Virus record (IMG/VR): IMGVR_UViG_3300035698_035359
Span: 26,260-90,259 of that record
DNA from: a virus
Strand: one strand, 5' to 3'
Length of the DNA stretch: 64,000 nt
Positions 13,157-63,230 of this stretch are shown piece after piece. The translations under genes and the position numbers were made by a program. The notes under the pieces are model-generated. The model was given only the letters and a program-made list of their open reading frames with translations, did not search any database and was not told the origin of the DNA. How positions within the stretch are numbered: position 1 is the stretch's first letter; every line of letters starts with the position of its first letter.

Positions 13157-13161
13157 AAAAT

Positions 13162-13338: not shown

Positions 13339-13365
13339 AAACTATTAAAAAATAAAAACAGTTTA

Positions 13366-13395
13366 AATATACAAGAGATTAATTTGTATATTCCA
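13366..13395 (+). ncRNA. CCA-terminated hairpin preceding tRNA-Asp
   Basis: AATATAC/GTATATT forms a 7-bp stem with a 13-base loop, followed directly by CCA and then by the first base of tRNA-Asp. This is the same arrangement as before tRNA-Met. Confidence 0.5.
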
Positions 13396-13470: not shown

Positions 13471-13544
13471 GAGGATTTGGTGTAATGGAAACATTTGTAG
13501 CTCCAAACTACAAGACATGGGTTCGATTCCTATAATCTTTGCCA
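13471..13544 (+). tRNA. tRNA-Trp (CCA)
   Basis: Acceptor GAGGATT/AATCTTT, D stem GTGT/ACAT, anticodon stem TGTAG/CTACA with loop CTCCAAA, T stem ATGGG/CCTAT with TTCGATT, encoded GCCA. It abuts tRNA-Asp. Confidence 0.92.
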
Positions 13545-47768: not shown

Positions 47769-48045
47769 TTTCAATCTCCCCTCCAATGTATTTTTCTCCA
47801 TCCCATATTTCCATATGCAATGAGTCATCTTTTTTATTCATAAATATTTTAAGATACCCCTTATTTATTAATTCTATCGTTGCTTCTTCAGATTCATCTA
47901 ATCCCATTCCTCCTTTATGAAATAAACTATAACAATTGTTACTTTTTAATAATTCTCTAATAACTTTAATAAAAAATTTTCGTTCTTCATTAGGTAAGTC
48001 TTGCACTTTAATAAAAGGTAAACTTGTAATTGGTGGTGGGTTCAT
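47755..48045 (-). CDS. Hypothetical protein (96 aa)
   Basis: The 96-residue protein starts one base from the end of the next glycosyltransferase gene. It begins MNPPPITSLPF and is alpha/beta with an acidic tail. No family recognised; its place suggests a small accessory of the glycan locus. Confidence 0.55.
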   Translation of the reverse strand: MNPPPITSLPFIKVQDLPNEERKFFIKVIRELLKSNNCYSLFHKGGMGLDESEEATIELINKGYLKIFMNKKDDSLHMEIWDGEKYIGGEIENELD

Positions 48046-48662
48046 TATAATACACCTCTTTTTAATGCTCTAGAAACTTGGTAATGTTTTATTACTGCAT
48101 TATCACATTTCACATGAGGTTCTTGTCCTCCAGGCATACTTGTTATATAACAATATTCTAATGGTAAGTCATATATCTTAATATCTTTTTTTTGCTTCAA
48201 AACCCTACCTAAAGCTTTCTGCTCCCAGTCACCAACTTCCATAGCATTTTCATACCATATTCTGCATAACTTTTTAACTTTATCAGTATTCCGCAAAAAC
48301 ATAGTCCCAGAAAGTACTTCTTTTACTCCACTATTGTTTTTATACCAAGTATCCCAATCTAGAGTATATAAAGCTATGCTATACTCTTCTGGAAGGCACT
48401 GGAACAGCTCTGGATAGCTCTCCACAGTACAATCGACATCTAATAGTACGATATTAGTACCCTTATATTTTTCAAGCGTCTGAAGGGCTATCAGGGGCTT
48501 TTGAGCTACATTTTTATGCCAATTATGATAGTTTTCAGCTTCTATAATAAGAGGCTCTATATTAAGCTTTTTAAGTGAAGGTAGTAGATATTTATTAGCC
48601 ACTTCAATATATGGACTGTCTTTAGTTATAAAACAAACTATTTTAAATTCTTCCATGGTCAT
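48045..48662 (-). CDS. GT-A type glycosyltransferase (nucleotide-sugar transferase)
   Basis: The 205-residue protein has a DVD metal-binding motif in IVLLDVDCTV (about residue 74-79), SGTMFLRN further on and DWEQKAL near residue 144, as in GT8-like and related nucleotide-diphospho-sugar transferases. It transfers a sugar from a nucleotide donor to a glycan. The acceptor is unknown. It overlaps the cupin gene by 20 bases. Confidence 0.7.
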   Translation of the reverse strand: MTMEEFKIVCFITKDSPYIEVANKYLLPSLKKLNIEPLIIEAENYHNWHKNVAQKPLIALQTLEKYKGTNIVLLDVDCTVESYPELFQCLPEEYSIALYTLDWDTWYKNNSGVKEVLSGTMFLRNTDKVKKLCRIWYENAMEVGDWEQKALGRVLKQKKDIKIYDLPLEYCYITSMPGGQEPHVKCDNAVIKHYQVSRALKRGVL

Positions 48663-48996
48663 CTTCCAATCTTATAATATCATCTTCTTTACATCTACCT
48701 TCTTGCACTTCTAATATTCTAGCAACATCTTTTCCATTATTCTGTAACCTATGAACTTCTTTTTTCTTAATCATATCCCAATAACCAAAAATATCTCTAA
48801 TATCTACTTCTTGGTTATCAATGACAAAGGTAACTTTACCTTTTAATAAGTACCAAAATTCAGACCTAAATTTATGAAACTGTAATGAAGTTCTTGATTT
48901 AGGGTTAATTTCTATAATTTTAACTTTGTAATTTTTATCTTGTTCAATAACTTTAAATCTACCCCAAGGTCTTTTAGACCATTTATTTTTTACCAT
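48643..48996 (-). CDS. Mannose-6-phosphate isomerase-type cupin
   Basis: The 117-residue protein matches the C-terminal cupin of type II mannose-6-phosphate isomerases: RPWGRFKVIE, then SLQFHKFRSEFW, HRLQNNG and ending LEVQEGRCKEDDIIRLEDDHGR. The metal-binding His/Glu set is present. Here it stands alone without the nucleotidyltransferase part, so it could convert fructose-6-P and mannose-6-P or act on a related sugar-phosphate for GDP-mannose/GDP-fucose supply. Confidence 0.8.
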   Translation of the reverse strand: MVKNKWSKRPWGRFKVIEQDKNYKVKIIEINPKSRTSLQFHKFRSEFWYLLKGKVTFVIDNQEVDIRDIFGYWDMIKKKEVHRLQNNGKDVARILEVQEGRCKEDDIIRLEDDHGRI

Positions 48997-49220
48997 GGTT
49001 TTATAATCCTACTTTTAGTTTCATGTAATTTTTTAGCTTCTTTTGGATGCTTTAAAAAATACAGTGCCTTTGCCAAATCATTTACAACTACTCCGTGAGT
49101 TTCTTCATCCCACTTAACAAATAATTTAAAGTGCTGTAAAAAGGAAATCATTTTGTCTATCGTTTCTTTTGTTTTACCTTTTTTAACTCCTATAAAACCT
49201 ATTTTCTTTTCATAACTCAT
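48990..49220 (-). CDS. Small SLOG-like hypothetical protein (76 aa)
   Basis: The N-terminal IGFIGVKKGKTKETI resembles the start of the IGFTGTRKGMT-type phage proteins of the SLOG/Rossmann group, but the protein is too short to hold the full fold. A C-terminal helix-rich part follows. The relationship is tentative. Confidence 0.4.
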   Translation of the reverse strand: MSYEKKIGFIGVKKGKTKETIDKMISFLQHFKLFVKWDEETHGVVVNDLAKALYFLKHPKEAKKLHETKSRIIKPW

Positions 49221-49708
49221 TGTTTTTCTTCCCTTTCTTCATAATTTATAATAACGTCAATACCCTCTTCAATAGTAGGAGTTTCATATCTGTTATAAAA
49301 GTTAGTCCAAACTTTATCCCAAACTTCTCTTTTAAAACCCCCATGAGGATTTTTCATTCTTCTATCAACTGAATCTTTTTGACTTAATCTAGGCATTAAA
49401 ATACAAGTAACTTTATATTTATATTTTTTCGCCATATTGATAAAATAATCTCTCCATTCTTGAGCTACATTAACTTCATCAATAAGTAAATTAACCCCTA
49501 GCTTCATAAATTTCTTAGCCATATTATGAGCAGAATCTATAATAATAGGTTCATATTCAGTATTAAATATATATTTACCTCCACCTATACCATAGCGCAT
49601 AGCATCTCTAGAAATTATAACATAGTCTTTCTTTTGATATTTAGAAGCAACAGTAGATTTACCACTTCCTATGTTTCCCACAGTTAAAATTAAATTTTTT
49701 TCTGACAT
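49217..49708 (-). CDS. P-loop kinase (polynucleotide kinase-like)
   Basis: The 163-residue protein starts with Walker A GNIGSGKST at about residues 11-19, followed by SRDAMRYG with the Asp-Ala-Met pattern of the AAA_33/PNK-type kinases, and LLIDEVN (Walker B-like). It likely phosphorylates a small molecule, sugar or nucleic-acid 5' end. In this locus a sugar or aminoalcohol substrate is attractive but unproven. Confidence 0.7.
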   Translation of the reverse strand: MSEKNLILTVGNIGSGKSTVASKYQKKDYVIISRDAMRYGIGGGKYIFNTEYEPIIIDSAHNMAKKFMKLGVNLLIDEVNVAQEWRDYFINMAKKYKYKVTCILMPRLSQKDSVDRRMKNPHGGFKREVWDKVWTNFYNRYETPTIEEGIDVIINYEEREEKQ

Positions 49709-49710
49709 TT

Positions 49711-50301
49711 CTAATTCTCCATTATATAGGTGTAATAAGCAAACCAGTAATCTCTATTTGTGTTGGCAATAACATTACATGGTTGACATATAGTAATTAA
49801 ATTATTAATATTACAATTCTTTTTGTTATAATCTATATGATGAATATCTAATTTTCTATAATAGTCTTTTTCTTTCTTTCCACACTTTTGACAGGTATAA
49901 TTATCTCTTTTTCTTATTTTTTCTTTTAATTTAGAAGTAAATTTTAAGCTATACTCGCCAAAGCTTAAACCACCTTGCCAATTCCAATGTTTATCTCCTA
50001 TCTCGGCTTCACCTATCTTCCTCTTAGTTTCTTCTGATAATTTTCCCCCTCTTAGACTATTAGCTATTTGCTTTCTCATTTTTTTAGTCATTCTTTTCTT
50101 ATGAATAACAACTACTTTGTTTCTATATTTAGGAGTAGTCCATATTTTCTTCATAAATAAACTATGTTCTGGATTCTTTTTCCCCTTTAATTTTTGTCTT
50201 ATTTTTGCTTTAATTTCTTCGCCCATTTTCCTATTTTTATTCCAAGGAATATGTCCTTTTTTAAAACTTCCATTATTTGACTGCCCTTTATGCAAACCCA
50301 T
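49711..50301 (-). CDS. HNH homing endonuclease with NUMOD3 motifs
   Basis: The ATG at 50301 is favoured because GGGAG precedes it and the longer version (to 50322) would overlap the APS kinase gene more. NUMOD3-type DNA-binding segments (LSEETKRKIGEA) lie in the first half. The C-terminal part is an HNH domain: CQKCGKKE, LDIHHIDYNKKN and NNLITICQPCN. It is a mobile gene inserted in the glycan locus next to the APS kinase gene. Confidence 0.85.
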   Translation of the reverse strand: MGLHKGQSNNGSFKKGHIPWNKNRKMGEEIKAKIRQKLKGKKNPEHSLFMKKIWTTPKYRNKVVVIHKKRMTKKMRKQIANSLRGGKLSEETKRKIGEAEIGDKHWNWQGGLSFGEYSLKFTSKLKEKIRKRDNYTCQKCGKKEKDYYRKLDIHHIDYNKKNCNINNLITICQPCNVIANTNRDYWFAYYTYIMEN

Positions 50302-50744
50302 TATTTTACTCCCAATAACCAATCTTCAAAAATTTCTACGCATTTTCCCTTACTATTTTTATCTATATCTATTTTTAAATCAGGTTCCATAGGGATTTCG
50401 TAAGGTTTATTAGAAGCTAATCTCAATTTTCTTTCCAAGTAAACCCATTTTATAGGAACTATTTTCTGTAACTTTAATCTCGTATCTCTAAATGGAGCAA
50501 TAACAGATACAATTACTAGTTGATTTTGTTTTAGTAACACTTTAGCTAATCTTGCAACTCTTAAATTATGTTCTTCTCTAGCTTCTTTAGTGAAACCTGC
50601 ACCCAGAGAAATACTATCTCGCATTTCATCTCCATCTAGGATTACACAGCTATTATGTTTTTTAAATCCATAAGCTAAAGTTGTTTTACCTGCTCCCGAA
50701 TTTCCAGTGAGCCAAATTATTTGTTTTCTTTTTTGCATTGACAT
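50301..50744 (-). CDS. cysC: Adenylylsulfate (APS) kinase
   Basis: The 147-residue protein has the APS-kinase hallmarks: Walker A GNSGAGKTT at 14-22, DGDEMRDSIS, LGAGFTKEAREEHNLRVARLAK and VSVIAPFRDTR. The reaction is APS plus ATP to PAPS plus ADP. PAPS is the sulfate don for sulfotransferases, two of which are encoded at 61105-62518. It is slightly shorter than bacterial CysC (about 200), lacking part of the C-terminal region. No ATP sulfurylase is seen in this window, so APS would come from the host or another phage gene. Confidence 0.85.
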   Translation of the reverse strand: MSMQKRKQIIWLTGNSGAGKTTLAYGFKKHNSCVILDGDEMRDSISLGAGFTKEAREEHNLRVARLAKVLLKQNQLVIVSVIAPFRDTRLKLQKIVPIKWVYLERKLRLASNKPYEIPMEPDLKIDIDKNSKGKCVEIFEDWLLGVK

Positions 50745-50968
50745 TTTTCCCTTTCGTCCATTTTAAATAGTCTTAGAAATGTATAGTGATATAAATAATA
50801 TAGACACATATTAATAGTGCCCCATATTAAGGAAGCTCCCATTGCCCCAAAACTTATCATGGCTTGTTTCACTACCAATTTAAAGAAAATAGCGTTGACT
50901 AATATTACTATGCATCTATATACAAGACCGCTTTTTAGTAATCTAATTGTTTTAATCGGTCTCCACAT
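50717..50968 (-). CDS. Small membrane protein, DUF2061-like (83 aa)
   Basis: Two hydrophobic segments (about residues 16-33 and 40-65) flank a short loop, with basic ends. Similar pattern and length to one half of the DUF2061 protein at 51788-52183. DUF2061 proteins are often linked to sulfate-activation genes in bacteria. It overlaps the APS kinase gene by 28 bases. Confidence 0.55.
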   Translation of the reverse strand: MWRPIKTIRLLKSGLVYRCIVILVNAIFFKLVVKQAMISFGAMGASLIWGTINMCLYYLYHYTFLRLFKMDEREKCQCKKENK

Positions 50969-51311
50969 TTCGCGATTCCCTAATCTTTGTTGCTGATATT
51001 TGTTCCGTTTCTTTATCTAGACTTATCACACGAATTCCCCATCCCACTTTTCTGCCATGACATACTTCATCTATATCAGGTATTTTAATAACTTTAACTG
51101 TTCCATCCAACATTTCATCCTTAAACTCTGCGATAAACATAAACAATCTTTCATCATAATTATACGGATTACTTTCATCTTTCATAGTATTTCTAATAGC
51201 AACACAAACATTTTTTCCTTCATCTAAAACCGATTGTATTAATTTGATATGCCCAGCGTGGAGAGGTTGATATCTCCCTATCATTAAAGAATAAACTTTT
51301 TTCTCTTTCAT
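50952..51311 (-). CDS. Nucleotidyltransferase (cytidylyltransferase superfamily)
   Basis: The 119-residue protein has GRYQPLHAGHIKLI, the HxGH motif, near its start and ISATKIRES at the end, the second signature (ISxTxxR). This superfamily couples NTP to phosphate groups and includes NMN adenylyltransferase and glycerol-3-phosphate cytidylyltransferase. The substrate cannot be told from sequence; an activated sugar or alcohol for the glycan locus is one option. ATP sulfurylase is not supported, since it is much longer. Confidence 0.72.
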   Translation of the reverse strand: MKEKKVYSLMIGRYQPLHAGHIKLIQSVLDEGKNVCVAIRNTMKDESNPYNYDERLFMFIAEFKDEMLDGTVKVIKIPDIDEVCHGRKVGWGIRVISLDKETEQISATKIRESRNVETD

Positions 51312-51478
51312 TTCACTTTCTCCTTTAGATATAATATTCTATTTTTAATTCTATTTTCCTTTATTTGATAATACACTTTTTTCTTTTCAGTTGTTGCGGG
51401 TTGACATACCTCTCTTACATTAAATATTGCTAATTCTATTTCATATAGTAACAGTTCTAATTGTCGATATTTATTCAT
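51308..51478 (-). CDS. Hypothetical protein (56 aa)
   Basis: The frame starts at 51478 and its TGA overlaps the next start (ATGA). The 56 residues are helical with several Lys/Glu (LLLYEIELAIFNVREVC). No clear ribosome site was required because of overlap with the upstream gene. No family recognised. Confidence 0.5.
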   Translation of the reverse strand: MNKYRQLELLLYEIELAIFNVREVCQPATTEKKKVYYQIKENRIKNRILYLKEKVK

Positions 51479-51740
51479 CTTTATAAAATTCTTCTACATC
51501 ATGATGACCACTATATTTAAGAGATAAATCATTTCCATCTTTTAGTAAATCGATAACCTTTCTTGCCCAAATTCTATCCTCCTCTTTAATTTTTTCTGGT
51601 AATTGTTCATAAGGCACCCATAATCTTTGCCATCTTGCTAATATGTTCTGTCTAACGTCTTGAGTTCTTGATATATTCTTAGACCAAAATACCCATTGCT
51701 CATGTTCTAATGCAGCTAATTTTTCTATTAATTTTTCCAT
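51471..51740 (-). CDS. Conserved phage protein, LEHEQW family (89 aa)
   Basis: The ATG at 51740 is preferred over 51776 because AAGGAGAAA precedes it. The 89-residue protein contains LEHEQWVFWSK and later WVPYEQLPE with KEEDRIWARKV, a pattern I recall from other phage proteins of unknown function. No catalytic motif is seen. Confidence 0.6.
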   Translation of the reverse strand: MEKLIEKLAALEHEQWVFWSKNISRTQDVRQNILARWQRLWVPYEQLPEKIKEEDRIWARKVIDLLKDGNDLSLKYSGHHDVEEFYKDE

Positions 51741-51787
51741 ATTTTTCTCCTTTGGGGTGGTGCCCGAAGACACCACCTATTTTACTA

Positions 51788-52183
51788 TTATCTTGTTCCT
51801 AACTTAATTTTCTTCCAAACAAATTCATTAATTATATAGGTAATATGTTTAATTCCTATATAAGTAAGTGTAATTGCTGTCATCTGTTTCCAATCACCTG
51901 TAATACAATAAGTAATCGTACCTAAAATCACATTACCTAACAATGTTTCATATGTAAACATTTTAGCAATACTTCTAGCAGTTAATCCAACAGGATGTTT
52001 TATCCTCAACCATATTCTTTCATGAAAATAAAATACAACAAGAAATACTCCATGATGAATAACTGTGATTAACCCAGTCTGCACCCAATGTCTTGTATAA
52101 AAATACGTTACTGCACCCAATATCAAAACACCCATAACACGCCATATAGCTGATTTGCTTGCGCTTCTTATTTTAGTTTCCAT
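51788..52183 (-). CDS. DUF2061-type membrane protein (131 aa)
   Basis: The protein shows two similar halves, each with two spans. KSAIWRVMGVLILGAVTYF and HHGVFLVVFYFHERIWLRI form the first, TYETLLGNVILGTITYCI and a HITYIINEFVW end the second. This repeats the DUF2061 pattern R..gt..t...tg...H...YY.HERiW. Such proteins often lie beside sulfate-activation genes, as here. Function unknown. Confidence 0.75.
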   Translation of the reverse strand: METKIRSASKSAIWRVMGVLILGAVTYFYTRHWVQTGLITVIHHGVFLVVFYFHERIWLRIKHPVGLTARSIAKMFTYETLLGNVILGTITYCITGDWKQMTAITLTYIGIKHITYIINEFVWKKIKLGTR

Positions 52184-52353
52184 TTCATCCCTCCTCCTAT
52201 CTCACCAACTTTCCAATTATTATCGTTTTGTTCATTCATATCAGCACCGACCCAAACTTCATCGGGCATTACAGTACATTTTTTGTTAAATCCAGTTCCA
52301 GCACAACCAGTTAGCATAAGACTTAATATAAATATCGATATAAATTTTATCAT
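52168..52353 (-). CDS. Small lipoprotein (61 aa)
   Basis: A basic start, hydrophobic stretch (FISIFILSLMLTG) and a lipobox LTGC at residues 14-17 give a clear type II signal peptide. The mature part is about 45 residues. Small phage lipoproteins can be outer-membrane spanins or superinfection-exclusion factors. It overlaps the DUF2061 gene by 16 bases. Confidence 0.7.
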   Translation of the reverse strand: MIKFISIFILSLMLTGCAGTGFNKKCTVMPDEVWVGADMNEQNDNNWKVGEIGGGMKWKLK

Positions 52354-52760
52354 TTATTTTCCTCTCTTATTTTTTCTTTTATTTTTGTACTACTCTGTAC
52401 TGAGTAGTATGGCATCACTACAACTTTACCATTAATACTATTAATATAATTGTTTGCTGGCATCTCACTATGACTGGCACTTTCAAATAAAATGTCAGGT
52501 TTCAATGCCTTACAATTAGTTAATGGAGAATATTCTTCTTGACATACTGCCATATCTACATTCTTTAAGTTTGCAATAAGTTCTAATCTTTCATCAAATG
52601 ACTTTATCGGTTTAGGCTTTTTTTCCATACAAGCCTCATCAGATAATACGCCACAGATTAAAAAATCACATAAACTCTTACAATTTCTTAGATGCAACAG
52701 ATGTCCTTTATGTAAAATATCTCCAACAACATAACAGTATCCTATTATTTGGTCTTTCAT
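52350..52760 (-). CDS. TagD-like cytidylyltransferase
   Basis: The 136-residue protein has GDILHKGHLLHL with the HxGH motif and ends near SSTKIKEKI, the second signature. The size equals glycerol-3-phosphate and ethanolamine-phosphate cytidylyltransferases. It would make a CDP-alcohol for transfer onto a glycan or teichoic-acid-like polymer. Another nucleotidyltransferase (50952-51311) and a LicC-like domain (58349-59608) are in the same locus. Confidence 0.72.
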   Translation of the reverse strand: MKDQIIGYCYVVGDILHKGHLLHLRNCKSLCDFLICGVLSDEACMEKKPKPIKSFDERLELIANLKNVDMAVCQEEYSPLTNCKALKPDILFESASHSEMPANNYINSINGKVVVMPYYSVQSSTKIKEKIREENK

Positions 52761-53689
52761 ATTAACTCCTTTATTTTGTCATATGCCATAGCAAAAGTAG
52801 AGTATTTATTCATTAATAACTGTCTTGCTTGTCTCATATCTTCTAAATGTTCTTCTCTAAAATTACTTTTAACTAGCTCATGTATTTTATTAATTTCATT
52901 TATATTATCCCATTTTCGAATATCAACATAACGAAAAGAATTTTCTGGTAACCAATTTTGAATATTATCACTACCAAAATAAATAGGCATTGCCCATAAC
53001 AACATAGAATCAAAAAATCTTTCACTAAAATAATTCTTTATCCAGTCACCATCTGGAAAGACTCCATGGTCAAAGTCTAAAGAATATCTATAATTTTTTA
53101 ATACTCCCTTTCCTACAGTATGTTCATTATTACGTCCATCAAAAGTTTTATTACCTAAAATTCCTTTATATACTTTATTTAATATAGGATTAGCTTCAAA
53201 TAGCCTTTCTTGCCTACCATATACATCAATATCTTTAGAAACTTTTGTATATGATTCTAAAAACTTAATCCTATGAATATAAGTTGAATATTTATCCCTA
53301 TAAGTAGTTATACTTAATAGATTTTTTTCTTTCTTAGGTGGTTCCATTGCCATTAAAGTATCATAATCCTCTTCTATCCACCATTCACCTATACATAATG
53401 ATGTATCCGCAGGAAATACCGCTAATGCTTTATCTTTTACATCATCCATAGTTTTAAAGGCAGGAATACCTTGAGGATGTTGGGCAAAGAATAAAGTTCT
53501 TTCTATTGGATATTTATGTGTAGGATAACCGTCTACGCATACAACAAAATCTGCTTGCTTTAGGTCTGTTGTTGCTTCCATTTCTTTCCAAATTCCCTTT
53601 TTACCAGGAGTCATTTTAATTATTGTACTTAAAAACACTTCTGGGTTTTTAAAATGTGGACTAGTAAATAATACTTTAAATTTTTTCAT
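52757..53689 (-). CDS. GT10 (fucosyltransferase-like) glycosyltransferase, copy 1
   Basis: The 310-residue protein carries the conserved C-terminal GT10 block: YFSERFFDSMLLWAMPIYFG, then ENSFRYVDI. This family uses GDP-L-fucose in alpha-1,3/4 fucosyltransferases. The N-terminal part has MTPGKKGIWKEME. It is a clear paralog of 57422-58321, probably by duplication within this locus. It should fucosylate an unknown glycan acceptor. Confidence 0.78.
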   Translation of the reverse strand: MKKFKVLFTSPHFKNPEVFLSTIIKMTPGKKGIWKEMEATTDLKQADFVVCVDGYPTHKYPIERTLFFAQHPQGIPAFKTMDDVKDKALAVFPADTSLCIGEWWIEEDYDTLMAMEPPKKEKNLLSITTYRDKYSTYIHRIKFLESYTKVSKDIDVYGRQERLFEANPILNKVYKGILGNKTFDGRNNEHTVGKGVLKNYRYSLDFDHGVFPDGDWIKNYFSERFFDSMLLWAMPIYFGSDNIQNWLPENSFRYVDIRKWDNINEINKIHELVKSNFREEHLEDMRQARQLLMNKYSTFAMAYDKIKELI

Positions 53690-54497
53690 TTTTCCTCCGT
53701 TTAAGAATTCCCAATTCTCTCAGTTCTTTTCCCATCAAAACAGTAATTTTAACTTTCGGATACTTTTTCTTAAAAAGCTTGAATTTTCTTTTAGCTCCAG
53801 GTCTCCAGTATCCTTTTACTTCAATCCATTCATTAGTTTTAATCAAATAAAAATCAGGACGATAAGTGCAATTACCTAAATCAAAAACTTTCTTTTCATA
53901 TGTCCATTTAATTTTATTTTTATCTAGATACTTAGCATACTTAATTTCCCAGGAACTCCGCATCCATATTTTTTTATAATAGCCTCCTTTATAATTATTA
54001 TCTTTACTTTGACAACCTTTACCAAAATTAGGATTATTTTTACCTACATGAGTTTTATTTAGTTTTTTGGTTTTACTAATACTTTTTTTATGCTCTAATG
54101 AAAGAGGGCATCTTTTTTTGCCTTTGATATATTTATGATAACAGTCAGAACATCTTTTATTTCCATAAGAAATCGGTGATTCGCAATCTATACAAAAGTT
54201 GTTTGTACTAATACCGTTCTTCCAATTAGGGTTATTTTTACCAGATAACTCAGTTCCTTTATGAAAAAATCTATTTTTAACACCAGATATTGCTAATTTA
54301 ACTGCTTCTATTTGAGTTCTTTTAGATATATTATATTTATTTAATCTGTTAGAAATAGTTGAGGAATCACATTTTTGTTCCTTTGTGATTTGGATAATTG
54401 ATTTCTTATTTGTGATATATTCCAAAATAAGAAATTCTTTTGTAATATAATTATATTTCTGATTAAAATATCCTTTATGATTATGATTCCCTTTCAT
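53676..54497 (-). CDS. Homing endonuclease with NUMOD3 motifs and PD-(D/E)xK-type nuclease
   Basis: The 273-residue protein has an N-terminal HTH-like segment, NUMOD3-type repeats (LSGKNNPNWKNG, VGKNNPNFGKG) and a four-cysteine zinc segment. The C-terminus has MRSSWEIKYAKYLD, YRPDFYL and WIEVKGYWRP, the order of the EDxHD/Vsr-like homing nucleases. It overlaps the GT10 gene by 14 bases, suggesting recent insertion that kept the neighbour's start. Confidence 0.8.
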   Translation of the reverse strand: MKGNHNHKGYFNQKYNYITKEFLILEYITNKKSIIQITKEQKCDSSTISNRLNKYNISKRTQIEAVKLAISGVKNRFFHKGTELSGKNNPNWKNGISTNNFCIDCESPISYGNKRCSDCYHKYIKGKKRCPLSLEHKKSISKTKKLNKTHVGKNNPNFGKGCQSKDNNYKGGYYKKIWMRSSWEIKYAKYLDKNKIKWTYEKKVFDLGNCTYRPDFYLIKTNEWIEVKGYWRPGAKRKFKLFKKKYPKVKITVLMGKELRELGILKRRKNEKI

Positions 54498-54516
54498 AAA
54501 TTAAATTCCTTTTTCA

Positions 54517-56604
54517 TTATATTTCTCCTTTATACCATTCTATAGTTTTTTTCAATCCATTTTCTAAGGACATTTCAGCCTCAAAATTTATTTCTGTTTT
54601 AGCTTTTGATACATCTAAGACTCTGTTTATTTGCCCAGTAGGTTTAGAACTATTAAAAACTACATTCTTTCCATATTCAGTAAGTTTATTCAAAGTTGAA
54701 GCCAAATGACCCATAGTTACTTCTTCTCCACTCCCTATATTTAAAGGTTCAGATTTATTATATTTTTCCATAGCTAATATTATTGCTTTAGCACAATCTT
54801 CTACATATAGAAAATCCCTAGTAACTGGTCGACTTCCCCAGATAGATACTTTGCGTATCTTATTCTTTTTTGCAGTTAGGAATTTCTTGATAAGAGAAGC
54901 AATAACATGAGAAGATTTGTCTCTTGGTCCATATAAATTTGTAGCTAGTAAAAATATAGCATCAAAACTATATTGTTTTCTGTAAGCTTGTGTTTGTACC
55001 AATAACATTTTTTTAGCCATAGCATAAGGAGCATTTGTTATGTTAGGATAACCACTCCATAAATCTTCTTCTTTGAAAGGAGCAGGGCAATTCTCAGGGT
55101 AGCAGGAAGCTGTTCCTAATGTAACAAATTTCTCTAGTTTAAGTTTTCTTGCTTCTTCCATTAATTGAATACCCATTATAGCATTATCATAAAAGAACTC
55201 TGCTGGTCTTTTCATATTGTCTTCAATTCCTCCAGCCAATGCAGCTAAGTGAATTACAATATTAGGTTTAAAGTCAGCATAAGCTTTTTTTATATCACTA
55301 AGCTTCCTTAAATCATATTCTTCAATTTTAGGAATGAAAACTTTATGTCCTCTATGCAATAATTGTATATTTACATGTGAACCTAAGAAACCTTCTCCAC
55401 CAGTTAACATAACTCTTTTAACATTATTATCTGCTACAGATTCCATCATAAAATTTATAGATTTTTCAGGTTTAGATTCTATAATTTTAAGTTTAGGTTT
55501 AAACACTACTTTTTCTGGTGTAATACTTTCTTCTAAACTTGGAGTATTTTTTTCTGGAACAATAACTTTTGGAGTAACAATTTCTGGAACCTCTTCTATT
55601 ATACTACTTTCCACGTATTTATATCTTAATTTTTTATATTTTTTTCTTATCAGGTCTACTAATTGCTGTGCCCTTATCTCATGAGTATGTCTTGATTCGA
55701 TACAAGACCTTGCTCTATTTGTAGCTGAACCCACATAATATTTATTATGTATTATCATACTTGCCTTTTCAAGCAAATCAGAGAAGTCTTCTTTATATGT
55801 GCAATAACTTCCTTCAGGAAATAACATTTTTAGTCCATATTTATCAGATTCATTAGTAAACAACAAACTACCTGAAGCCATTATTTCAAACATTTTAGCT
55901 GAACTAATATCAAAAAGGCTAGAACCATTCAAGTGACAAATATAGTTATGTAAACAAGCAAGATAACTTTGTTCTTTACATGTAGCTTTTTTATTTACAA
56001 AATACGCTTTATCTTTTAATATTTCACATACACCTCTACGAAAAGGATATGCTACTCCTCCGCTATTACCAGCGAAACAAATTTTATTTTCTTTTGAAAT
56101 TGTTTTATCATGATAAAAAGTATTAGTATCCACTGAAAAAGGAAACCACTCATGTTTTACTTTCTGTCCTCTAAGAGATTGAGAATAGTGACGTTGTAGA
56201 ACTAAATTAATTCCATTTTCATAAAACCAATCATCATTGTCTTGATAATGGTAGTCTTCTTCTATTACTAATTTTGGTGTTTTATTAAAAGAAGCAAAAT
56301 CTTTAGGTAGCCAACAGTTATATCTTAACTCTTGCCCCTCTAATCTAGGTGGAGTATATTTTTCAAACATTCTACTCATAGTATTGATAATAACTACATC
56401 AAAGTCTAATTCTTTCTTTAAATCTTCCATAGTCAAATCTTTATCATAGGGAAATGCTAATTTAGGATGACCATTTTCTAGGTCTAATCCATACCCCACT
56501 AAATCTACACCATTTAGTTTCTTTATAGTTTTAGCAAAGTCCATATGAAACCAGTGGTCAAAGTTATACCAACTGGCATATCTATAGAGCCACAAAATAC
56601 GCAT
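54517..56604 (-). CDS. Fusion: CgeB-like glycosyltransferase + GDP-L-fucose synthase-like epimerase/reductase
   Basis: The 695-residue protein joins two enzymes. The first 330 residues look like a GT-B/CgeB transferase (KMFEIMASGSLLFTNESDKYG). After a Pro/Lys-rich linker (about 340-385) a short-chain Rossmann enzyme follows: TGGEGFLGSHV, SCYPENCPAP, YAMAKKML (Tyr and Lys of the catalytic pair), LATNLYGPRD, RDFLYVEDCA, and NIGSGEEVT. This order is that of GDP-L-fucose synthase, which makes GDP-L-fucose. Next to GT10 enzymes, a fucose route is a strong inference. Confidence 0.85.
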   Translation of the reverse strand: MRILWLYRYASWYNFDHWFHMDFAKTIKKLNGVDLVGYGLDLENGHPKLAFPYDKDLTMEDLKKELDFDVVIINTMSRMFEKYTPPRLEGQELRYNCWLPKDFASFNKTPKLVIEEDYHYQDNDDWFYENGINLVLQRHYSQSLRGQKVKHEWFPFSVDTNTFYHDKTISKENKICFAGNSGGVAYPFRRGVCEILKDKAYFVNKKATCKEQSYLACLHNYICHLNGSSLFDISSAKMFEIMASGSLLFTNESDKYGLKMLFPEGSYCTYKEDFSDLLEKASMIIHNKYYVGSATNRARSCIESRHTHEIRAQQLVDLIRKKYKKLRYKYVESSIIEEVPEIVTPKVIVPEKNTPSLEESITPEKVVFKPKLKIIESKPEKSINFMMESVADNNVKRVMLTGGEGFLGSHVNIQLLHRGHKVFIPKIEEYDLRKLSDIKKAYADFKPNIVIHLAALAGGIEDNMKRPAEFFYDNAIMGIQLMEEARKLKLEKFVTLGTASCYPENCPAPFKEEDLWSGYPNITNAPYAMAKKMLLVQTQAYRKQYSFDAIFLLATNLYGPRDKSSHVIASLIKKFLTAKKNKIRKVSIWGSRPVTRDFLYVEDCAKAIILAMEKYNKSEPLNIGSGEEVTMGHLASTLNKLTEYGKNVVFNSSKPTGQINRVLDVSKAKTEINFEAEMSLENGLKKTIEWYKGEI

Positions 56605-57425
56605 TATATTTCCTCCTTCTTCAACTTCAACTCTTTTGGTATTAAGTCATCAATATTTATCTCTGTAGGATGGTTAGAATCTCCTACTTTACCTAACAGC
56701 CTATCCCTAATAATTAGCGGATTTTTTCTAGTGACTTTTAAAATTTCTAGCCTTTCAGGTGCTGGTTCTGCCCAATGGTGATATTGATGCACAATCACTT
56801 TATCCATAAATGGAATTTTACCTAAGATAGCTTTGATTCTATACCACAAATCATTATCTTCTGCACCATAACCAAAATAATTTTCATTCATCCCACCTAA
56901 AACATTTAAGAAGAATAGTCTATCGGCAAACCATATACCGCCTATTGTTTCTATGTTACTAGTAAATTGTATTCTTACTATCGGATTATCTCTACCTGGA
57001 AGACATACTATATTGCTATAAGCATTGAAAAGTAATGTATTTCTACCTTCTTCCAAGGATTTTAGTCTAAATAATATTAATCTTTTAAAATATTCTTTAT
57101 CAAATAAAACATCTGCATCTACAACTAAAATGTTATTGGTTGCTGCTGCCTTTATTCCTACGTTTACACACCAACTCTTATTGAAAGGTCTATCATCTTT
57201 TAATATAATATGTTTAGTCACTAGTTGAGGAACTCTAAAATGACTATGTTCTTTAAGTTCTTCTACCAATATTGTATCAAACTTAATAACATGCTCTATA
57301 TCAAGTTTATTTACAAACACTCTCTTTTGTACTCTAATACATTCAAATAAATCTTTTAGTGCTTGCTCTCTAAGCCCACCACCATAAGTGTAAGGAATAA
57401 TTATACTAAATTTTATTGTTTTCAT
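56604..57425 (-). CDS. GT-A glycosyltransferase (GT2/GT7-like)
   Basis: The 273-residue protein starts FSIIIPYTYGG and contains a VVDADVLF motif (DxD, about residue 98-105) and GGMNENYFGYGAEDNDLWYR, similar to the acceptor loop of beta-4-galactosyltransferases. It should transfer a hexose or N-acetylhexosamine. Its end touches the start of the fusion gene. Confidence 0.78.
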   Translation of the reverse strand: MKTIKFSIIIPYTYGGGLREQALKDLFECIRVQKRVFVNKLDIEHVIKFDTILVEELKEHSHFRVPQLVTKHIILKDDRPFNKSWCVNVGIKAAATNNILVVDADVLFDKEYFKRLILFRLKSLEEGRNTLLFNAYSNIVCLPGRDNPIVRIQFTSNIETIGGIWFADRLFFLNVLGGMNENYFGYGAEDNDLWYRIKAILGKIPFMDKVIVHQYHHWAEPAPERLEILKVTRKNPLIIRDRLLGKVGDSNHPTEINIDDLIPKELKLKKEEI

Positions 57426-58321: not shown

Positions 58322-58348
58322 ATTATTGTATTCCTTTCATAGTTTTTA

Positions 58349-59608
58349 TTAACATGACTCTGGAAGTCTTGCTGGTTTCTTTCCTTCTTTTGGTATCTTC
58401 CAATCTGCTCCATAACATAGTTCTAAAAACTCTTCCGTATGACATGGAACTTTAAAAGTATATCCTTTAAACTCAAAATCTATTAAATTATCTAAGAAGT
58501 GTTTTGGATATCCTAGAGGACTTCTTTTAGGTGCAGCAACATACTTGTCTCCCTTATCTTCTGATAAAGTTACTTGTATTTTTTCTTTATCTCTTATATA
58601 CCACCTATCTTCAGGGAAACAAACTTCTTCTTTAGGAATGAAACATCCTTTCTTAATTAAATCTACTTCTACTTTATGGATTATTTTTTCTCTATCTTCC
58701 CAATGAGCTGATATATCCATATCTGTATCCCAAGAAATAAAAGCTCCATCTCTAACTAATCCTAACAAAGTTCCCCAACAAAGCCAATATTTTATATCGT
58801 GTTTTTTAAATGTTTCAACAGTATCTATTAGTAATCTTAAAGCATTATCTTGATGCATTTTAGCTTTATGTCTAATTCCAAATTCCCAATCAGGCATTCC
58901 CCAAATAAATATTTCTCTAGCTTCTAATAAATCTTCTTCAAAATCTATTTCTATGGAAGGAAAATTAGTTACATCTATCATATAAGTACCGTCATGATAA
59001 GGTTTCTGTTTAAGAAAGGGATTTATAGCATGTTCAAACCATTGATTCTTATCACACTCATAAAGATGTTTTTTAAAACGTGTAATATTATCAGTGAATT
59101 TTGCTATTCCCATAAACTCTCCATAAGAGTCTTTTATTTCTTTGCTTACCTCTAATATCTTATGTGGGAAATAACTCTCATCTACAGTAACTTTCATATC
59201 TTCTTCTATGTAATCTTTCTTTTGGATAGCCATACAATTTGAAACAGGAGATAATACTACATTCCTAATTACATCTGGATGGCATATTGTATCTCCATTT
59301 AATACTATAAAACCATTATCATTTTCTTCTAATGCCAATCCCAAAGAGAAGGCATTATTAGTAGTCGAATATTGGGTGTTGTATATTAACTCTACATTCA
59401 TATGATTATATTTTTCGATAAATTTTTCAACTTTATCATGTTGAAATCCAGTCACAATAGTAACATCATAAATACCACTTTTACTTAATCCATCTAATTG
59501 CCAACCTAATATTTCCTTTCCTCCGACTTTTAAAAGGCATTTAGGTGTATCATCAGTATAAGGTTTTAATCTTGTTCCTTGTCCTGCAGCTAGTATAATT
59601 GCTCTCAT
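58349..59608 (-). CDS. Fusion: LicC-like nucleotidyltransferase + LicD-like transferase
   Basis: The first 235 residues form a nucleotidyltransferase: LAAGQGTRLKPYTDDTPKCL (activation loop), VLNGDT and IEIDFEED (metal-binding). The last 165 residues match LicD: CWGTLLGLVRDGAFISWDTDMDI and later a LCYGADWKIP end. In LicC-LicD systems CTP plus phosphocholine gives CDP-choline, and LicD moves phosphocholine to teichoic acid or LPS sugar. A single 419-residue chain would join both steps. No choline kinase or transporter was seen. Confidence 0.8.
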   Translation of the reverse strand: MRAIILAAGQGTRLKPYTDDTPKCLLKVGGKEILGWQLDGLSKSGIYDVTIVTGFQHDKVEKFIEKYNHMNVELIYNTQYSTTNNAFSLGLALEENDNGFIVLNGDTICHPDVIRNVVLSPVSNCMAIQKKDYIEEDMKVTVDESYFPHKILEVSKEIKDSYGEFMGIAKFTDNITRFKKHLYECDKNQWFEHAINPFLKQKPYHDGTYMIDVTNFPSIEIDFEEDLLEAREIFIWGMPDWEFGIRHKAKMHQDNALRLLIDTVETFKKHDIKYWLCWGTLLGLVRDGAFISWDTDMDISAHWEDREKIIHKVEVDLIKKGCFIPKEEVCFPEDRWYIRDKEKIQVTLSEDKGDKYVAAPKRSPLGYPKHFLDNLIDFEFKGYTFKVPCHTEEFLELCYGADWKIPKEGKKPARLPESC

Positions 59609-60354
59609 ATTTCATACTCCTTTAATTTACTTTTGAATTTCTCAAATTTATCTTCTCTGCAATAAGCAACAGCTAAATCATCTTCATCTTTGCAAAGAAA
59701 AACAAAATTCTTTCTCAATTTATCGAATATTTTTTCTTTAGGTTTCCAGACTTCTTTCCATTTACCAGTCTTCATCATCTCTTCCCATCTTCTATTAGTA
59801 TAGAAGCATACCAATTCTATACTTTCAGAGAATCTAGAAGTAATAAAGATTGTTGGAGAACTACAATTATTTACTACAATTGGCTTTGTTGTTTTAAAAT
59901 CATTTAGTTTATATTTAATATCACCAGCTTTCATTAAATCTTCTAACATTGATGGGCAAATTTGAGAAAAGTTGTCTATTGCATGAAAATTATCAAATCC
60001 TAATTTAGATAAATAAAATATAAGTCTACCCATACCAGCTCCGAAATCTTCTATTAATATATGCTTATCTTTGTAGAGTAAGTCAACCAAAAATAAAGGT
60101 AAATAATTAGAAACATATAAAATTAGATTATAGCGTTCATCCTCTCTTACTTTAGAGTCACAGTTAGGATAACATCTTGATAAAGGTAGTTTCTTGACAG
60201 AATCAGGGTCAAACCATCTACTTACTTTTTTATTTTCTAAATCATAGGGTCCATCGTGATTGTAAGTGTAATTTGAACATACATCTCTAATTACTTTTTC
60301 ATGACATTGGAGATTCTTATAAAAGTTTAGATTTTTAAATATATTAATAGACAT
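59605..60354 (-). CDS. SAM-binding-like protein, copy 1
   Basis: The 249-residue protein contains IEDFGAGMGRLIFYLSKLGF, a glycine-rich motif I with an FxGxG pattern like Rossmann methyltransferases. The ends are not typical. It is a paralog of the next gene. A methylation role on the glycan is possible but not shown. Confidence 0.5.
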   Translation of the reverse strand: MSINIFKNLNFYKNLQCHEKVIRDVCSNYTYNHDGPYDLENKKVSRWFDPDSVKKLPLSRCYPNCDSKVREDERYNLILYVSNYLPLFLVDLLYKDKHILIEDFGAGMGRLIFYLSKLGFDNFHAIDNFSQICPSMLEDLMKAGDIKYKLNDFKTTKPIVVNNCSSPTIFITSRFSESIELVCFYTNRRWEEMMKTGKWKEVWKPKEKIFDKLRKNFVFLCKDEDDLAVAYCREDKFEKFKSKLKEYEI

Positions 60355-61108
60355 GTACTTTATATTCCTCTAGTTGTTTTTTAAACTCATCATACTTATC
60401 TTTTCTGCAATAAGCTATTGAAAGTAGGTTTTGCTCTTCACATAATTCTACATAGCCACTACCCTTTAAGAAAGAACCAAAATCTTTTAGAAGAGCATTA
60501 TTACAATATACACAAACTAATTCAGTTGTCTCTATATTAAAGCCTTTTATTTTAGGATAAGAAGGATATCCGCAATGATTTACTACAACTGGTTTTGACT
60601 TATTCTTTTCATCGGAAATTATTTTTTGATTTTTAAGTTCAAGACAATCATTTAGCATATGTTTAACTTTAGGGTTTAATTCTGTAACTTTTTTCCAGAA
60701 ACTTTCTAGAAATTTTTGTGGCATCTGTGAAAAGTTATCAACAAAACTAAAATTAGTATATCCTAATTTAGATAAATAATAGCTAAATCTGCTTATGCCA
60801 CAGCAACTATCTTCTATTAAAATATCTTTCTTATCACGATACAGTAAATCTAATAAAAATATTCCTAAATAATTAGGTTGATAAAGTATCAATTCGTAAG
60901 AATTTTTTAATGTTATCTTCCAAAGAGGTTCTGTTCCTCTTATCTTTAACCATAAAGCATTCACTTTTTTAGGGTCAAACCACCAAGAAGGTACATGCTT
61001 TCCTGATTCCAAATCTTCTATATATTCCTTGTATATCAACTCAGGTAATTCGTTGTGCTTTTTAAGACTTTCAAATAATTCCGTATTCTTAAATATGTTT
61101 ATTCTCAT
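60344..61108 (-). CDS. SAM-binding-like protein, copy 2
   Basis: The 254-residue protein aligns with 59605-60354: both begin M.INIFKN, share a W[FW]FDP segment, ILIED and YYLSKLG. Here motif I is SCCGISR, with the usual glycines replaced, so SAM binding may be lost. Tandem duplicates of this kind suggest divergence of function. Confidence 0.5.
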   Translation of the reverse strand: MRINIFKNTELFESLKKHNELPELIYKEYIEDLESGKHVPSWWFDPKKVNALWLKIRGTEPLWKITLKNSYELILYQPNYLGIFLLDLLYRDKKDILIEDSCCGISRFSYYLSKLGYTNFSFVDNFSQMPQKFLESFWKKVTELNPKVKHMLNDCLELKNQKIISDEKNKSKPVVVNHCGYPSYPKIKGFNIETTELVCVYCNNALLKDFGSFLKGSGYVELCEEQNLLSIAYCRKDKYDEFKKQLEEYKVHVY

Positions 61109-61764
61109 AAAATGTATTCCTCCAATTTTGGATTTAATTTTAAAATTTTATCTCTAATTTGCTTAGAGTAATTTCTTACAAATATAGTTTTCATACTATT
61201 TTTATATTCTGGTATAATACCTTTCCTGTGTTTCTTTATAATTTCCTTTGTGCATTTAAGCTTATAAAGTTTTTTTTCATCTATCACATCAGTAAAATGG
61301 AGTATTGCTTTGGATATTTCTTTATGCATATCTTTAACTAATCCTTCATAAGTTATTATTGTTTTCTTTTTAGTATCATTAAAAAGCCATTTAGATATCT
61401 GGTCAACATATTGCTCTGTCCAAGAGTTTACATTATTTCTAAGTACTTTACCTCTAATATTTGTCATTTCTGGATATCTATTACTAAAAAATCTCATACA
61501 AGAAAAGACGCATTCTGCACTATTTTTACGATACAGATAAAGAACATTATTAGGTTGTAAACTTAGCTCCATATCATGTGTTCTAATAGCTAAATAATTA
61601 TCATTATTATGGATAAAACAAGCAGGTAATATTGGTCTTTCAAAGTACTGCTCTAACAAATACCATACCCAATGAGTTCCTGAGCGAGGAAAACTTATAA
61701 AATGTGGGAAATCTTTATTATATAAATAAGGATAACACTTTTTAATTTCTAGGAGTCTTTGCAT
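61105..61764 (-). CDS. PAPS-dependent sulfotransferase, copy 1
   Basis: The 219-residue protein has the 5'-phosphosulfate loop FPRSGTHWVWYLLE near residues 25-38, and later LYLYRKNSAECVFSCM, the 3'-phosphate-binding segment with Arg and Ser. It should transfer sulfate from PAPS to a hydroxyl of a glycan. With APS kinase in the same locus the PAPS supply is covered by phage genes. Confidence 0.75.
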   Translation of the reverse strand: MQRLLEIKKCYPYLYNKDFPHFISFPRSGTHWVWYLLEQYFERPILPACFIHNNDNYLAIRTHDMELSLQPNNVLYLYRKNSAECVFSCMRFFSNRYPEMTNIRGKVLRNNVNSWTEQYVDQISKWLFNDTKKKTIITYEGLVKDMHKEISKAILHFTDVIDEKKLYKLKCTKEIIKKHRKGIIPEYKNSMKTIFVRNYSKQIRDKILKLNPKLEEYIL

Positions 61765-62518
61765 ATCCCCACCTCACTAACTGTCCATCTAGTTCATAGA
61801 ATATAGACCATAGATGTTTGGGTACTAATTTTTTCCAGCCACCAACTTTTCCATCACCTATGTGATGAACATGCATATTACTTATGAAATTTACATTGTC
61901 AAATTCTTCTCGTAAATTCCTATTTATAACTATATCATTAGACTTTTGCTTATTAGCTTCTATGCTTGTATTTGCTATTATTTCCTCTCTTTTACTTTTT
62001 GGAATTGTGACATCAAAAAAGACTTCTATTTTTTCGAATAAATAATCATAGTTATTGAAAAAATCCTCATACCTTAACCATAATAAATTGTTTCTAAGAT
62101 GATATAGCTTACCCTTTTCTTCCATATATTCTCGTCTATATCTATTCAAATGTCCTAATTGCTTTCGTGTCTTTTCGACACTTTTAACTAGTTTAGTAGG
62201 TTCTGGAACAGAAATTAAATTCCTATTCTCATCAAACTGTCCATGGTGAATTCTCCATTGTGAACATGCACAATCTCTAAAGTCTCTATATCCAATTACT
62301 AATGGTAACTCCGTTTCTTCATATAGATGTGCAGTAGTTTCAACATCAAATAGATGCAATAAGACTTGTCTTAAAAAACTACCTCCACTTCTCGGTAACC
62401 AATATAGCTTTATTTTTTTCTCTATCATCATAGGATTATAACAATCAAGAATGGCTTTTCTATTTGCATCTCTCGCTTTTTCTTTACTGTCTGACATTTT
62501 AAGTTTTTTCCTTTTCAT
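61742..62518 (-). CDS. PAPS-dependent sulfotransferase, copy 2
   Basis: The 258-residue protein contains LPRSGGSFLRQVL (5'-phosphosulfate loop), GYRDFRDCACSQW (3'-phosphate segment), and DGKVGGWKKL near the C-terminus, like the conserved GxxGxWK motif of sulfotransferases. It overlaps copy 1 by 23 bases. A start at the internal Met8 is also possible. Confidence 0.75.
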   Translation of the reverse strand: MKRKKLKMSDSKEKARDANRKAILDCYNPMMIEKKIKLYWLPRSGGSFLRQVLLHLFDVETTAHLYEETELPLVIGYRDFRDCACSQWRIHHGQFDENRNLISVPEPTKLVKSVEKTRKQLGHLNRYRREYMEEKGKLYHLRNNLLWLRYEDFFNNYDYLFEKIEVFFDVTIPKSKREEIIANTSIEANKQKSNDIVINRNLREEFDNVNFISNMHVHHIGDGKVGGWKKLVPKHLWSIFYELDGQLVRWGYAKTPRN

Positions 62519-63230
62519 TTATTAATTCCCACGATTTACCCCAAATTAATCCTTGAGATTTTCTTTTGAGATGTGTTAATATATCTTTATTTTTAGTATC
62601 ACCTCTTGAAACTTTATGCGTTTCATCCATTTCTTCACGACAAAATCCAGGATGGTAATGTTTTAATATTGCATCTTTACAATGTATGAACTTATTTAGT
62701 GAAGAAGCATATTCAAACATTTCTTCATCTTGATACAAAAAAGTATAATCTGGACATGCTATTTGTCTATCAGGATATCTTTCGATAAATTGTTTACCTA
62801 TTAAAGTTTGCCCAAATGGTTTATAAGTATATTCAGAGTGCCCAGGACATACCTGACTTAATCCTACAATACCATTAGTATCTTTGTAATTTTCTTTAAA
62901 ACATTTTACTGCATTTTCTAAGCATTCGGGATAAAGCTCTACATCATCACAAAGCCCTAACATAGCATCTTTTATGTTTTCGTTTCCTTGTGAATCCCTA
63001 GTAAATAGATTCCAACAACCCATAACATATTGATGGTCAAGTATTATAATAGGAAATACTTTATCAATACCTTTGTATTCTGTCTCAATATATTCAAAGC
63101 TTTCCACATCATTATTATCACACATAACATAAATCTTAAAGTCTTGGTGAGTTTGACATAGTATCGAATCAATACACCGTTTTAATTTTTTATGCCTCTG
63201 AAACGTAGGAATTACAATTGATAAATGCAT
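62499..63230 (-). CDS. GT2 glycosyltransferase
   Basis: The 243-residue protein starts LSIVIPTFQRHKKLKRCIDSILCQT, the classical GT2 N-terminal motif, and shows a CDDVELYP segment (DD metal-binding). It transfers a sugar from a nucleotide donor. It is the first enzyme gene of the leftward glycan locus and overlaps the sulfotransferase gene by 20 bases. Confidence 0.8.
   Translation of the reverse strand: MHLSIVIPTFQRHKKLKRCIDSILCQTHQDFKIYVMCDNNDVESFEYIETEYKGIDKVFPIIILDHQYVMGCWNLFTRDSQGNENIKDAMLGLCDDVELYPECLENAVKCFKENYKDTNGIVGLSQVCPGHSEYTYKPFGQTLIGKQFIERYPDRQIACPDYTFLYQDEEMFEYASSLNKFIHCKDAILKHYHPGFCREEMDETHKVSRGDTKNKDILTHLKRKSQGLIWGKSWELINEKEKT

What the first reader, a model, noticed from the sequence alone, without database searches (positions are those of the whole stretch)
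48045..63230. A phage locus that could make a fucosylated, sulfated and phosphocholine-type decorated glycan
Seen directly: within 15 kb on one strand there are a mannose-phosphate-isomerase-type cupin, a GDP-fucose-synthase-like fusion, two GT10 paralogs, three or more other glycosyltransferases, a LicC-LicD-like fusion, two cytidylyltransferases, an APS kinase and two sulfotransferases. Known: GT10 uses GDP-fucose, sulfotransferases use PAPS made by APS kinase, and LicC/LicD attach phosphocholine. Inference: the phage carries its own donor-making and transfer steps for a complex modified glycan, on the virion or the host surface. I am not aware of a described phage locus with this exact combination.
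Basis: partly seen in the sequence, partly recalled or inferred. Interest (0 to 1): 0.85.

Follow-up and report, generated by a model that had tools for sequence, protein, structure and literature searches.

The report
Swappable phage glycan-building gene island
Next to its tail genes this uncultured phage carries an exchangeable set of sugar-building and sugar-decorating genes that probably makes a sulfate- and phosphate-bearing glycan, and it includes a kinase-nucleotidyltransferase pair, also found in three other phages, that may supply the activated sulfate.

Summary
A 15 kb reverse-strand block after the tail genes encodes six glycosyltransferases (two GT10-like), a GT-GDP-fucose-synthase fusion, a LicC-LicD fusion, two sulfotransferases and a short APS-kinase homologue. 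A collinear relative (G002, terminase 54% identical) carries a different sugar set (NeuB, cytidylyltransferase, aminotransferase, radical-SAM) at the same site between related glycosyltransferases, so the block looks like a swappable glycan island.

Three corrections. (1) One 'cytidylyltransferase' (50952-51311) resembles an NMN adenylyltransferase. Its relatives in three other phages lie beside, or are fused to, an APS-kinase-like kinase; in one (G053) the neighbours also include a sulfotransferase and a DUF2061 membrane protein, as here. (2) The fucose-synthase-like domain has Ser where 80 viral homologues and E. coli have the catalytic Cys. Engineered Cys-to-Ser enzymes mostly make GDP-6-deoxy-altrose, so fucose is not assured. 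(3) Donor supply is incomplete on this contig: no GDP-mannose dehydratase, no canonical ATP sulfurylase; no flippase or polymerase candidate.

Close precedents exist: cyanophage S-CAM7 combines fucose genes with an unrecognised LicD. The full combination was not found in 50 GFS-bearing viral records. Target (virion or host surface) and glycan remain unproven. Verdict: new variant of a known kind.

The parts
48045..48662 (-). glycosyltransferase (Nucleotid_trans, PF03407); tail-proximal boundary gene kept in relative G002
   Evidence: Pfam 27.7 bits, cut-off 22; 51% identity to G002 88613-89254
48643..48996 (-). mannose-6-phosphate isomerase type II cupin domain, stand-alone
   Evidence: PF01050 87.7 bits; TIGR01479 C-terminus
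49217..49708 (-). AAA_33 P-loop kinase, role unknown
   Evidence: PF13671 53.2 bits
49711..50322 (-). HNH/NUMOD3 homing-type endonuclease; relatives in the G002 island
   Evidence: 52% identity over 84 aa to a G002 HNH
50301..50744 (-). APS-kinase homologue without the lid
   Evidence: PF01583 79.3 bits; lid deletion
50717..50968 (-). small membrane protein between the kinase and nucleotidyltransferase genes
   Evidence: one hydrophobic 19-residue peak; no Pfam hit
50952..51311 (-). small HIGH-superfamily nucleotidyltransferase, NadM-like N-terminal half, GRxVG[YW] motif; candidate APS-forming enzyme
   Evidence: 43% identity over 111 aa to the G053 gene beside APSK; relatives fused to APSK-like kinases in two phages
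51788..52183 (-). DUF2061 protein (two matched stretches)
   Evidence: PF09834 47.5 bits, cut-off 23.1
52350..52760 (-). HldE-C/TagD/phosphoethanolamine-type nucleotidyltransferase
   Evidence: TIGR02199 78.9 bits, below equivalog cut-off; PDB relatives
52757..53689 (-). GT10-like glycosyltransferase, paralogue 1
   Evidence: PF00852 22.5 bits; 38% to the paralogue
53676..54497 (-). putative endonuclease inside the island
   Evidence: PF05367 26.8 bits, below cut-off 29.1
54517..56604 (-). fusion: glycosyltransferase (Glyco_trans_1_2) + GDP-fucose-synthase-like SDR with Ser at the catalytic Cys position
56604..57425 (-). GT2/GT7-type glycosyltransferase
   Evidence: PF02709 33.0 bits, PF10111 32.9 bits
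57422..58321 (-). GT10-like glycosyltransferase, paralogue 2
   Evidence: PF00852 24.5 bits; 33% to the viral GT10 of L023
58349..59608 (-). LicC-LicD fusion: NTP transferase + LicD transferase
   Evidence: LicC 1jyk E 1.9e-19; homologues are separate neighbouring genes in Prevotella
59605..60354 (-). unknown, paralogue A; SAM-methyltransferase-like motif by eye
   Evidence: 44% to the next gene; no Pfam family
60344..61108 (-). unknown, paralogue B
61105..61764 (-). sulfotransferase, PAPS loop SFPRSGTHW
   Evidence: PF00685 23.6 bits, cut-off 22; motif read
61742..62518 (-). sulfotransferase, loops LPRSGGS and RDFRDCACS
   Evidence: PF00685 29.9 bits, cut-off 22; motifs read
62499..63230 (-). 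GT2 glycosyltransferase; distal boundary gene kept in G002
   Evidence: PF00535 35.9 bits; 34% to G002 107692-108393

Best explanation
A swappable glycan-biosynthesis island of a tailed bacterial phage. SHOWN: a one-strand gene block of GTs, sugar-nucleotide, sulfate and LicC-LicD enzymes after the tail genes; different sugar genes at the same place in a collinear relative, with boundary GTs kept. INFERRED: the enzymes assemble in the cytoplasm a short glycan (no lipid-carrier initiator, flippase or polymerase candidate was found) with a 6-deoxyhexose from a GDP donor, then add sulfate (kinase and nucleotidyltransferase to PAPS, used by the two sulfotransferases) and a phospho-alcohol (LicC-LicD). 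The most likely acceptor is a virion protein, with host-envelope glycan the alternative; exchange of the island changes the surface chemistry, as capsule-locus exchange does in bacteria.
For: Families. Collinearity and swapped island. Sugar cassettes in other phages, several beside tail-fibre genes: S-CAM7 and ACG-2014f, L007, L023, G053. Kinase + nucleotidyltransferase association: G053 and fusions in DLP_6 and AhaSv. No initiating phosphoglycosyltransferase of PF02397, no thymidylate-synthase-family enzyme, no protein with four or more hydrophobic segments.
Against: Both contigs end inside their islands, so missing genes may lie beyond. No acceptor is identified and there are no expression or chemical data. 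Only one close relative reaches the island. The kinase lacks the APS-kinase lid, the GT10 scores are marginal, and GMD is absent from the contig.
Confidence: 0.6

Rival explanations
1. The island modifies the host envelope (LPS, capsule or other surface glycan) to block superinfection or alter recognition, rather than decorating the virion.
For: Authors propose this for licD in Flandersviridae and for cyanophage sugar genes; LicD and sulfotransferases commonly act on bacterial surface polymers (general knowledge).
Against: No lipid-carrier initiator, flippase or polymerase candidate on the contig, though host ones could be used; the island lies next to tail genes, and S-CAM7, ACG-2014f and G053 also place sugar genes by tail-fibre genes.
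Confidence: 0.33
2. The APS-kinase-like / nucleotidyltransferase pair is a NAD-salvage module (kinase + NMN adenylyltransferase, NadR-like) and the sulfotransferases use host PAPS.
For: The nucleotidyltransferase's best solved relatives are NMN adenylyltransferases; a NADAR gene sits next to the fusion in AhaSv; the kinase lacks the APS-kinase lid.
Against: The kinases match APS_kinase best or near-best (79, 70, 38 and 32 bits); the acceptor half of the nucleotidyltransferase does not align to NMN adenylyltransferases; sulfotransferases are neighbours in G053 and here, and a sub-threshold one in AhaSv.
Confidence: 0.35
3. The glycosyltransferases hypermodify phage DNA.
For: Phage GTs are known to do so (cited in PMC12619734); P-loop kinases occur in such pathways (general knowledge).
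Against: No thymidylate-synthase/hydroxymethylase family enzyme on the contig; sulfotransferases, LicD and nucleotide-sugar enzymes fit poorly. The contig is incomplete, so this is not excluded.
Confidence: 0.04

Closest known systems
Synechococcus phage S-CAM7 sugar cassette (KU686213, 164047-171410)
   Same: Tail-fibre-flanked block with GMD, GDP-fucose synthase, GT11, other GTs and a LicD protein that the record calls hypothetical
   Different: No sulfotransferase or APS kinase recognised (the gene annotated 'adenylylsulfate kinase' matches methyltransferase families); GT11 instead of GT10; LicD not fused to LicC; GFS keeps the catalytic Cys
Cyanophage S-SCSM1 cell-wall gene set (PMC9602691)
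   Same: GMD, GFS, fucosyltransferases, GTs, stand-alone type II PMI, NMNAT
   Different: No LicC-LicD or sulfotransferase mentioned in the passages read
G053 / IMGVR_UViG_3300020204_003072
   Same: GMD, GFS, GT10, GT11, plus sulfotransferase + APSK + GRxVG nucleotidyltransferase + DUF2061
   Different: Sulfation genes lie about 25 kb from the fucose genes; no LicD; GMD present
Flandersviridae ispD-licD insertion (PMC8008677)
   Same: Nucleotidyltransferase and LicD genes in a phage, present in only some members
   Different: Two genes only, in the replication module
Moumouvirus australiensis glycan cluster (PMC9614988)
   Same: Virus gene cluster with GTs, nucleotide-sugar enzymes and two sulfate-metabolism enzymes
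   Different: Giant amoeba virus, unrelated architecture
Bifunctional PAPS synthetases (ATP sulfurylase-APS kinase)
   Same: Coupling of an ATP-using HIGH-superfamily nucleotidyltransferase with an APS kinase
   Different: Here about 245 aa when fused, NadM-like rather than PF01747, lid absent; activity untested

Membership tests
GDP-L-fucose synthase (GFS) | extended SDR Ser/Thr-Tyr-Lys triad | tested here: met
   Thr107, Tyr136, Lys140 (E. coli numbering), alignment of 82 sequences
GDP-L-fucose synthase (GFS) | Cys109/His179 epimerisation pair | tested here: not met
   His179 present, Cys109 replaced by Ser; Cys in all 81 others; Cys-to-Ser in human GFS gives about 70% of the altro product and about 440-fold lower activity (PMC12362431)
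GDP-L-fucose synthase (GFS) | NCBIfam equivalog cut-off | tested here: not met
   233 bits against 500
GT10 fucosyltransferase | Pfam GT10 domain over cut-off | tested here: inconclusive
   24.5 and 22.5 bits against 23.9; relative in L023 41.4 bits
GT10 fucosyltransferase | E-K of the donor-site motif (TEK/SEK) | tested here: not met
   E-R in both paralogues, E-K in L023; donor role of this Lys is from memory
LicC (phosphocholine cytidylyltransferase) | NTP-transferase fold closest to LicC | tested here: met
   1jyk best hit, E 1.9e-19; bacterial hits named phosphocholine cytidylyltransferase family
LicC (phosphocholine cytidylyltransferase) | choline-phosphate specificity | not testable with these tools
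   the match to LicC stops at residue 142 of the query, while another NTP transferase (6pd1) aligns to residue 198; specificity needs an assay
LicD | PF04991 domain with GTLLG...WDxDxD motif | tested here: met
   50.9 bits, cut-off 22.6; GTLLGLVRDGAFISWDTDMD read
APS kinase | P-loop, DGDxxR, R-E-H/N, S-x-x-P motifs | tested here: met
APS kinase | KGLYxKxRxGxIKxFTG lid | tested here: not met
   about 22 residues absent relative to phage LR756500 APSK; shortened or absent in G053, DLP_6, AhaSv
PAPS-dependent sulfotransferase | family score and 5'/3' phosphosulfate loops | tested here: met
   23.6 and 29.9 bits, cut-off 22; loops read by eye
ATP sulfurylase (PF01747) | PF01747 domain on the contig | tested here: not met
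   no match
NMN adenylyltransferase (NadM) | full-length homology including the NMN-binding half | tested here: not met
   profile aligns only over the N-terminal ATP-binding half

The most novel reading that the evidence does not exclude
Phages encode a miniature PAPS synthetase: a lid-less APS-kinase domain paired with, or fused to, a nucleotidyltransferase of about 115 residues derived from NadM that replaces ATP sulfurylase, with a DUF2061 membrane protein in two cases, feeding phage sulfotransferases that sulfate a glycan whose 6-deoxyhexose is D-altro configured because the fucose-synthase homologue naturally carries the Cys-to-Ser change.
Probability: 0.2. Interest if true: 0.85.

Novelty: new variant of a known kind. 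Interest (0 to 1): 0.62.

Why it matters
It suggests that phages can exchange whole glycan-decoration islands at one site, as bacteria exchange capsule loci, so that related phages may present different surface chemistry. It also gives directly testable enzymes: a natural Ser-for-Cys GDP-fucose-synthase homologue, a LicC-LicD fusion, and a kinase-nucleotidyltransferase pair that might be a compact route to PAPS. Sulfated glycans made by a phage would be unusual; no paper on phage PAPS synthesis was found in the held library with the terms tried.

Tried and rejected
AlphaFold2 of the GT10 pair and of the unknown pair gave mean pLDDT 36-37 and was not used. Close LicC-LicD fusions: none in viral contigs; none covering 80% in phages or plasmids. 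Relatives of the terminase or the GT10 pair in bacterial genomes: none. Cytidine-diphosphoramidate kinase (a CysC-like enzyme of Campylobacter, from memory) was considered as an alternative for the kinase; the partner enzymes of that pathway were not seen in the island, and no comparison sequence was obtained. A DUF2061 link to sulfate in bacteria: no plasmid hits and no informative paper. Structured RNAs in the island: none; promoter and terminator scans at chance level. DNA hypermodification: no supporting enzyme. The S-CAM7 'adenylylsulfate kinase' was first taken as a precedent for sulfation and rejected: it matches methyltransferase families.
Full report
WHAT THE SEQUENCE IS. The window is bases 26260-90259 of a 90,259-bp linear IMG/VR virus record. 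It reads as a tailed-phage genome fragment: a large ORF at 13975 whose relatives sit in the same order in other viral contigs, followed by further conserved genes up to long tail-like ORFs at 31-47 kb. A sigma-70 region-4 protein and Shine-Dalgarno-like motifs before 56 of 84 genes against a 10% background fit a bacterial host. I call the 13975 gene 'terminase' and the 45-47 kb genes 'tail' from position and sequence; no profile search was run on them. No relative of the terminase was found in the 50,697 annotated phage records.

THE OBSERVATION. From 63230 back to 48045, all on the minus strand, most genes overlap or abut. No homologues of either GT10-like protein or of either sulfotransferase were found in the phage collection by tblastn.

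THE ISLAND IS SWAPPED IN A RELATIVE. G002 (109,385 bp) is collinear over replication, head and tail genes at about 30-58% identity. After its tail genes it also carries a reverse-strand sugar block, but with NeuB (223 bits), a CTP_transf_3 cytidylyltransferase, a class III aminotransferase, several radical-SAM proteins, an E1/TPP protein and several GT2-like proteins. Only the tail-side GT (51%), the far GT2 (34%) and HNH endonucleases are shared. So position and boundary GTs are kept and the chemistry differs. This rests on two genomes, and both contigs end in their islands. HNH endonucleases inside both islands could help mobilise them (inference).

FUCOSE OR NOT. The 54517-56604 protein fuses a glycosyltransferase domain to a GFS-like SDR. 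In an alignment of 80 viral homologues plus E. coli GFS, Cys109 is invariant except here, where it is Ser with a Cys one residue later; Tyr136, Lys140 and His179 are kept. In human GFS the equivalent C116S change lowers activity about 440-fold and gives about 70% of the D-altro product and 30% GDP-L-fucose, consistent with earlier evidence for the C109S variant (PMC12362431). The phage enzyme may therefore make a 6-deoxy-altrose donor, a mixture, or be compensated by the shifted Cys. No GMD was found on the contig (the only hit is the GFS itself), whereas 41 of 50 GFS-bearing viral records have a GMD-type match above 260 bits.

SULFATION GENES. The kinase at 50301 has the APS-kinase motifs but lacks the lid. 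G053, the only one of 50 GFS-bearing records with a sulfotransferase and an APS kinase over cut-off, has sulfotransferase, short-lid APS kinase, the same nucleotidyltransferase (43% identity) and DUF2061 as consecutive genes. Searching phages with that nucleotidyltransferase led to DLP_6 and AhaSv, where it is fused to an APS-kinase-like domain (37.9 and 32.5 bits); AhaSv has a sub-threshold sulfotransferase-like gene and a NADAR gene nearby. In the 115 sequences scanned, all four proteins with the GR[YF]QPxHxGH and GRxVG[YW] motifs have a P-loop kinase with the DxD..R motif in the same protein or within 0.6 kb. Two of the four (window, G053) were chosen because they had both genes; DLP_6 and AhaSv were found by the nucleotidyltransferase alone. 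This supports a kinase-nucleotidyltransferase unit; that its product is PAPS is inference, and NAD metabolism is a live rival. No PF01747 ATP sulfurylase is on the contig.

PHOSPHO-ALCOHOL. The LicC-LicD fusion matches LicC (1jyk) in its N-terminal part and LicD/FKRP in its C-terminal part. In Prevotella sp. F0039 homologues of the two halves are separate neighbouring genes, which supports joint function. The substrate (choline, ethanolamine, aminoethylphosphonate, others) is open.

HOW COMMON. Among 50 viral records with GFS homologues: LicD 0, sulfotransferase over cut-off 1, APS kinase over cut-off 1, GT10 over cut-off 12. Records are fragments and the set was chosen by GFS similarity, so these are rough rates; the same GT10 profile scores the window's own two genes below cut-off in this tool, so divergent members are missed. 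S-CAM7, outside that set, pairs fucose genes with LicD.

TARGET. No initiating phosphoglycosyltransferase of PF02397 and no protein with four or more hydrophobic segments (a crude scale that missed both DUF2061 repeats) were found, which suggests cytoplasmic assembly; with the tail-side position this favours virion decoration slightly over host-surface modification. Neither is shown.

VERDICT. A new variant of a known kind (phage sugar cassettes), with three unusual and testable features: island exchange in one lineage, a natural Ser-for-Cys GFS homologue, and a kinase-nucleotidyltransferase pair possibly making PAPS.

Noticed in passing
L024:11636-12205 (S-CAM7, AOV62418.1): Annotated 'adenylylsulfate kinase' but matches only methyltransferase families; the next gene (AOV62419.1, hypothetical) is LicD over cut-off.
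   Followed up: yes
L112:3590-4321 and L113:3578-4324: Natural fusions of an APS-kinase-like domain with a NadM-like nucleotidyltransferase in Stenotrophomonas phage DLP_6 and Xanthomonas phage AhaSv, annotated hypothetical; some related hits are named 'kinase'.
   Followed up: partly
L013 and L014 (G002 88.6-109 kb): The relative's island holds NeuB plus several radical-SAM proteins, one with a B12-binding domain and one with SPASM, and an E1/TPP protein beside a possible partner half: possibly an unusual nonulosonic-acid pathway.
   Followed up: partly
window 59605-61108: Two paralogues of 249 and 254 aa with no family; the motif resembles SAM methyltransferases by eye, structure prediction failed.
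   Followed up: partly
window 12302-13544: Eight tRNA genes just before the terminase.
   Followed up: no
L003:16884-18236: Phage-encoded RtcB RNA ligase (370 bits), also in G002, where the ORF is longer (748 aa).
   Followed up: no
L003:1405-2505: 366-aa protein that aligns weakly to the GT10 pair (15% identity), outside the island.
   Followed up: no
window 51471-51776: RyR-domain protein just under cut-off (27.2 against 27.4 bits) inside the island.
   Followed up: no
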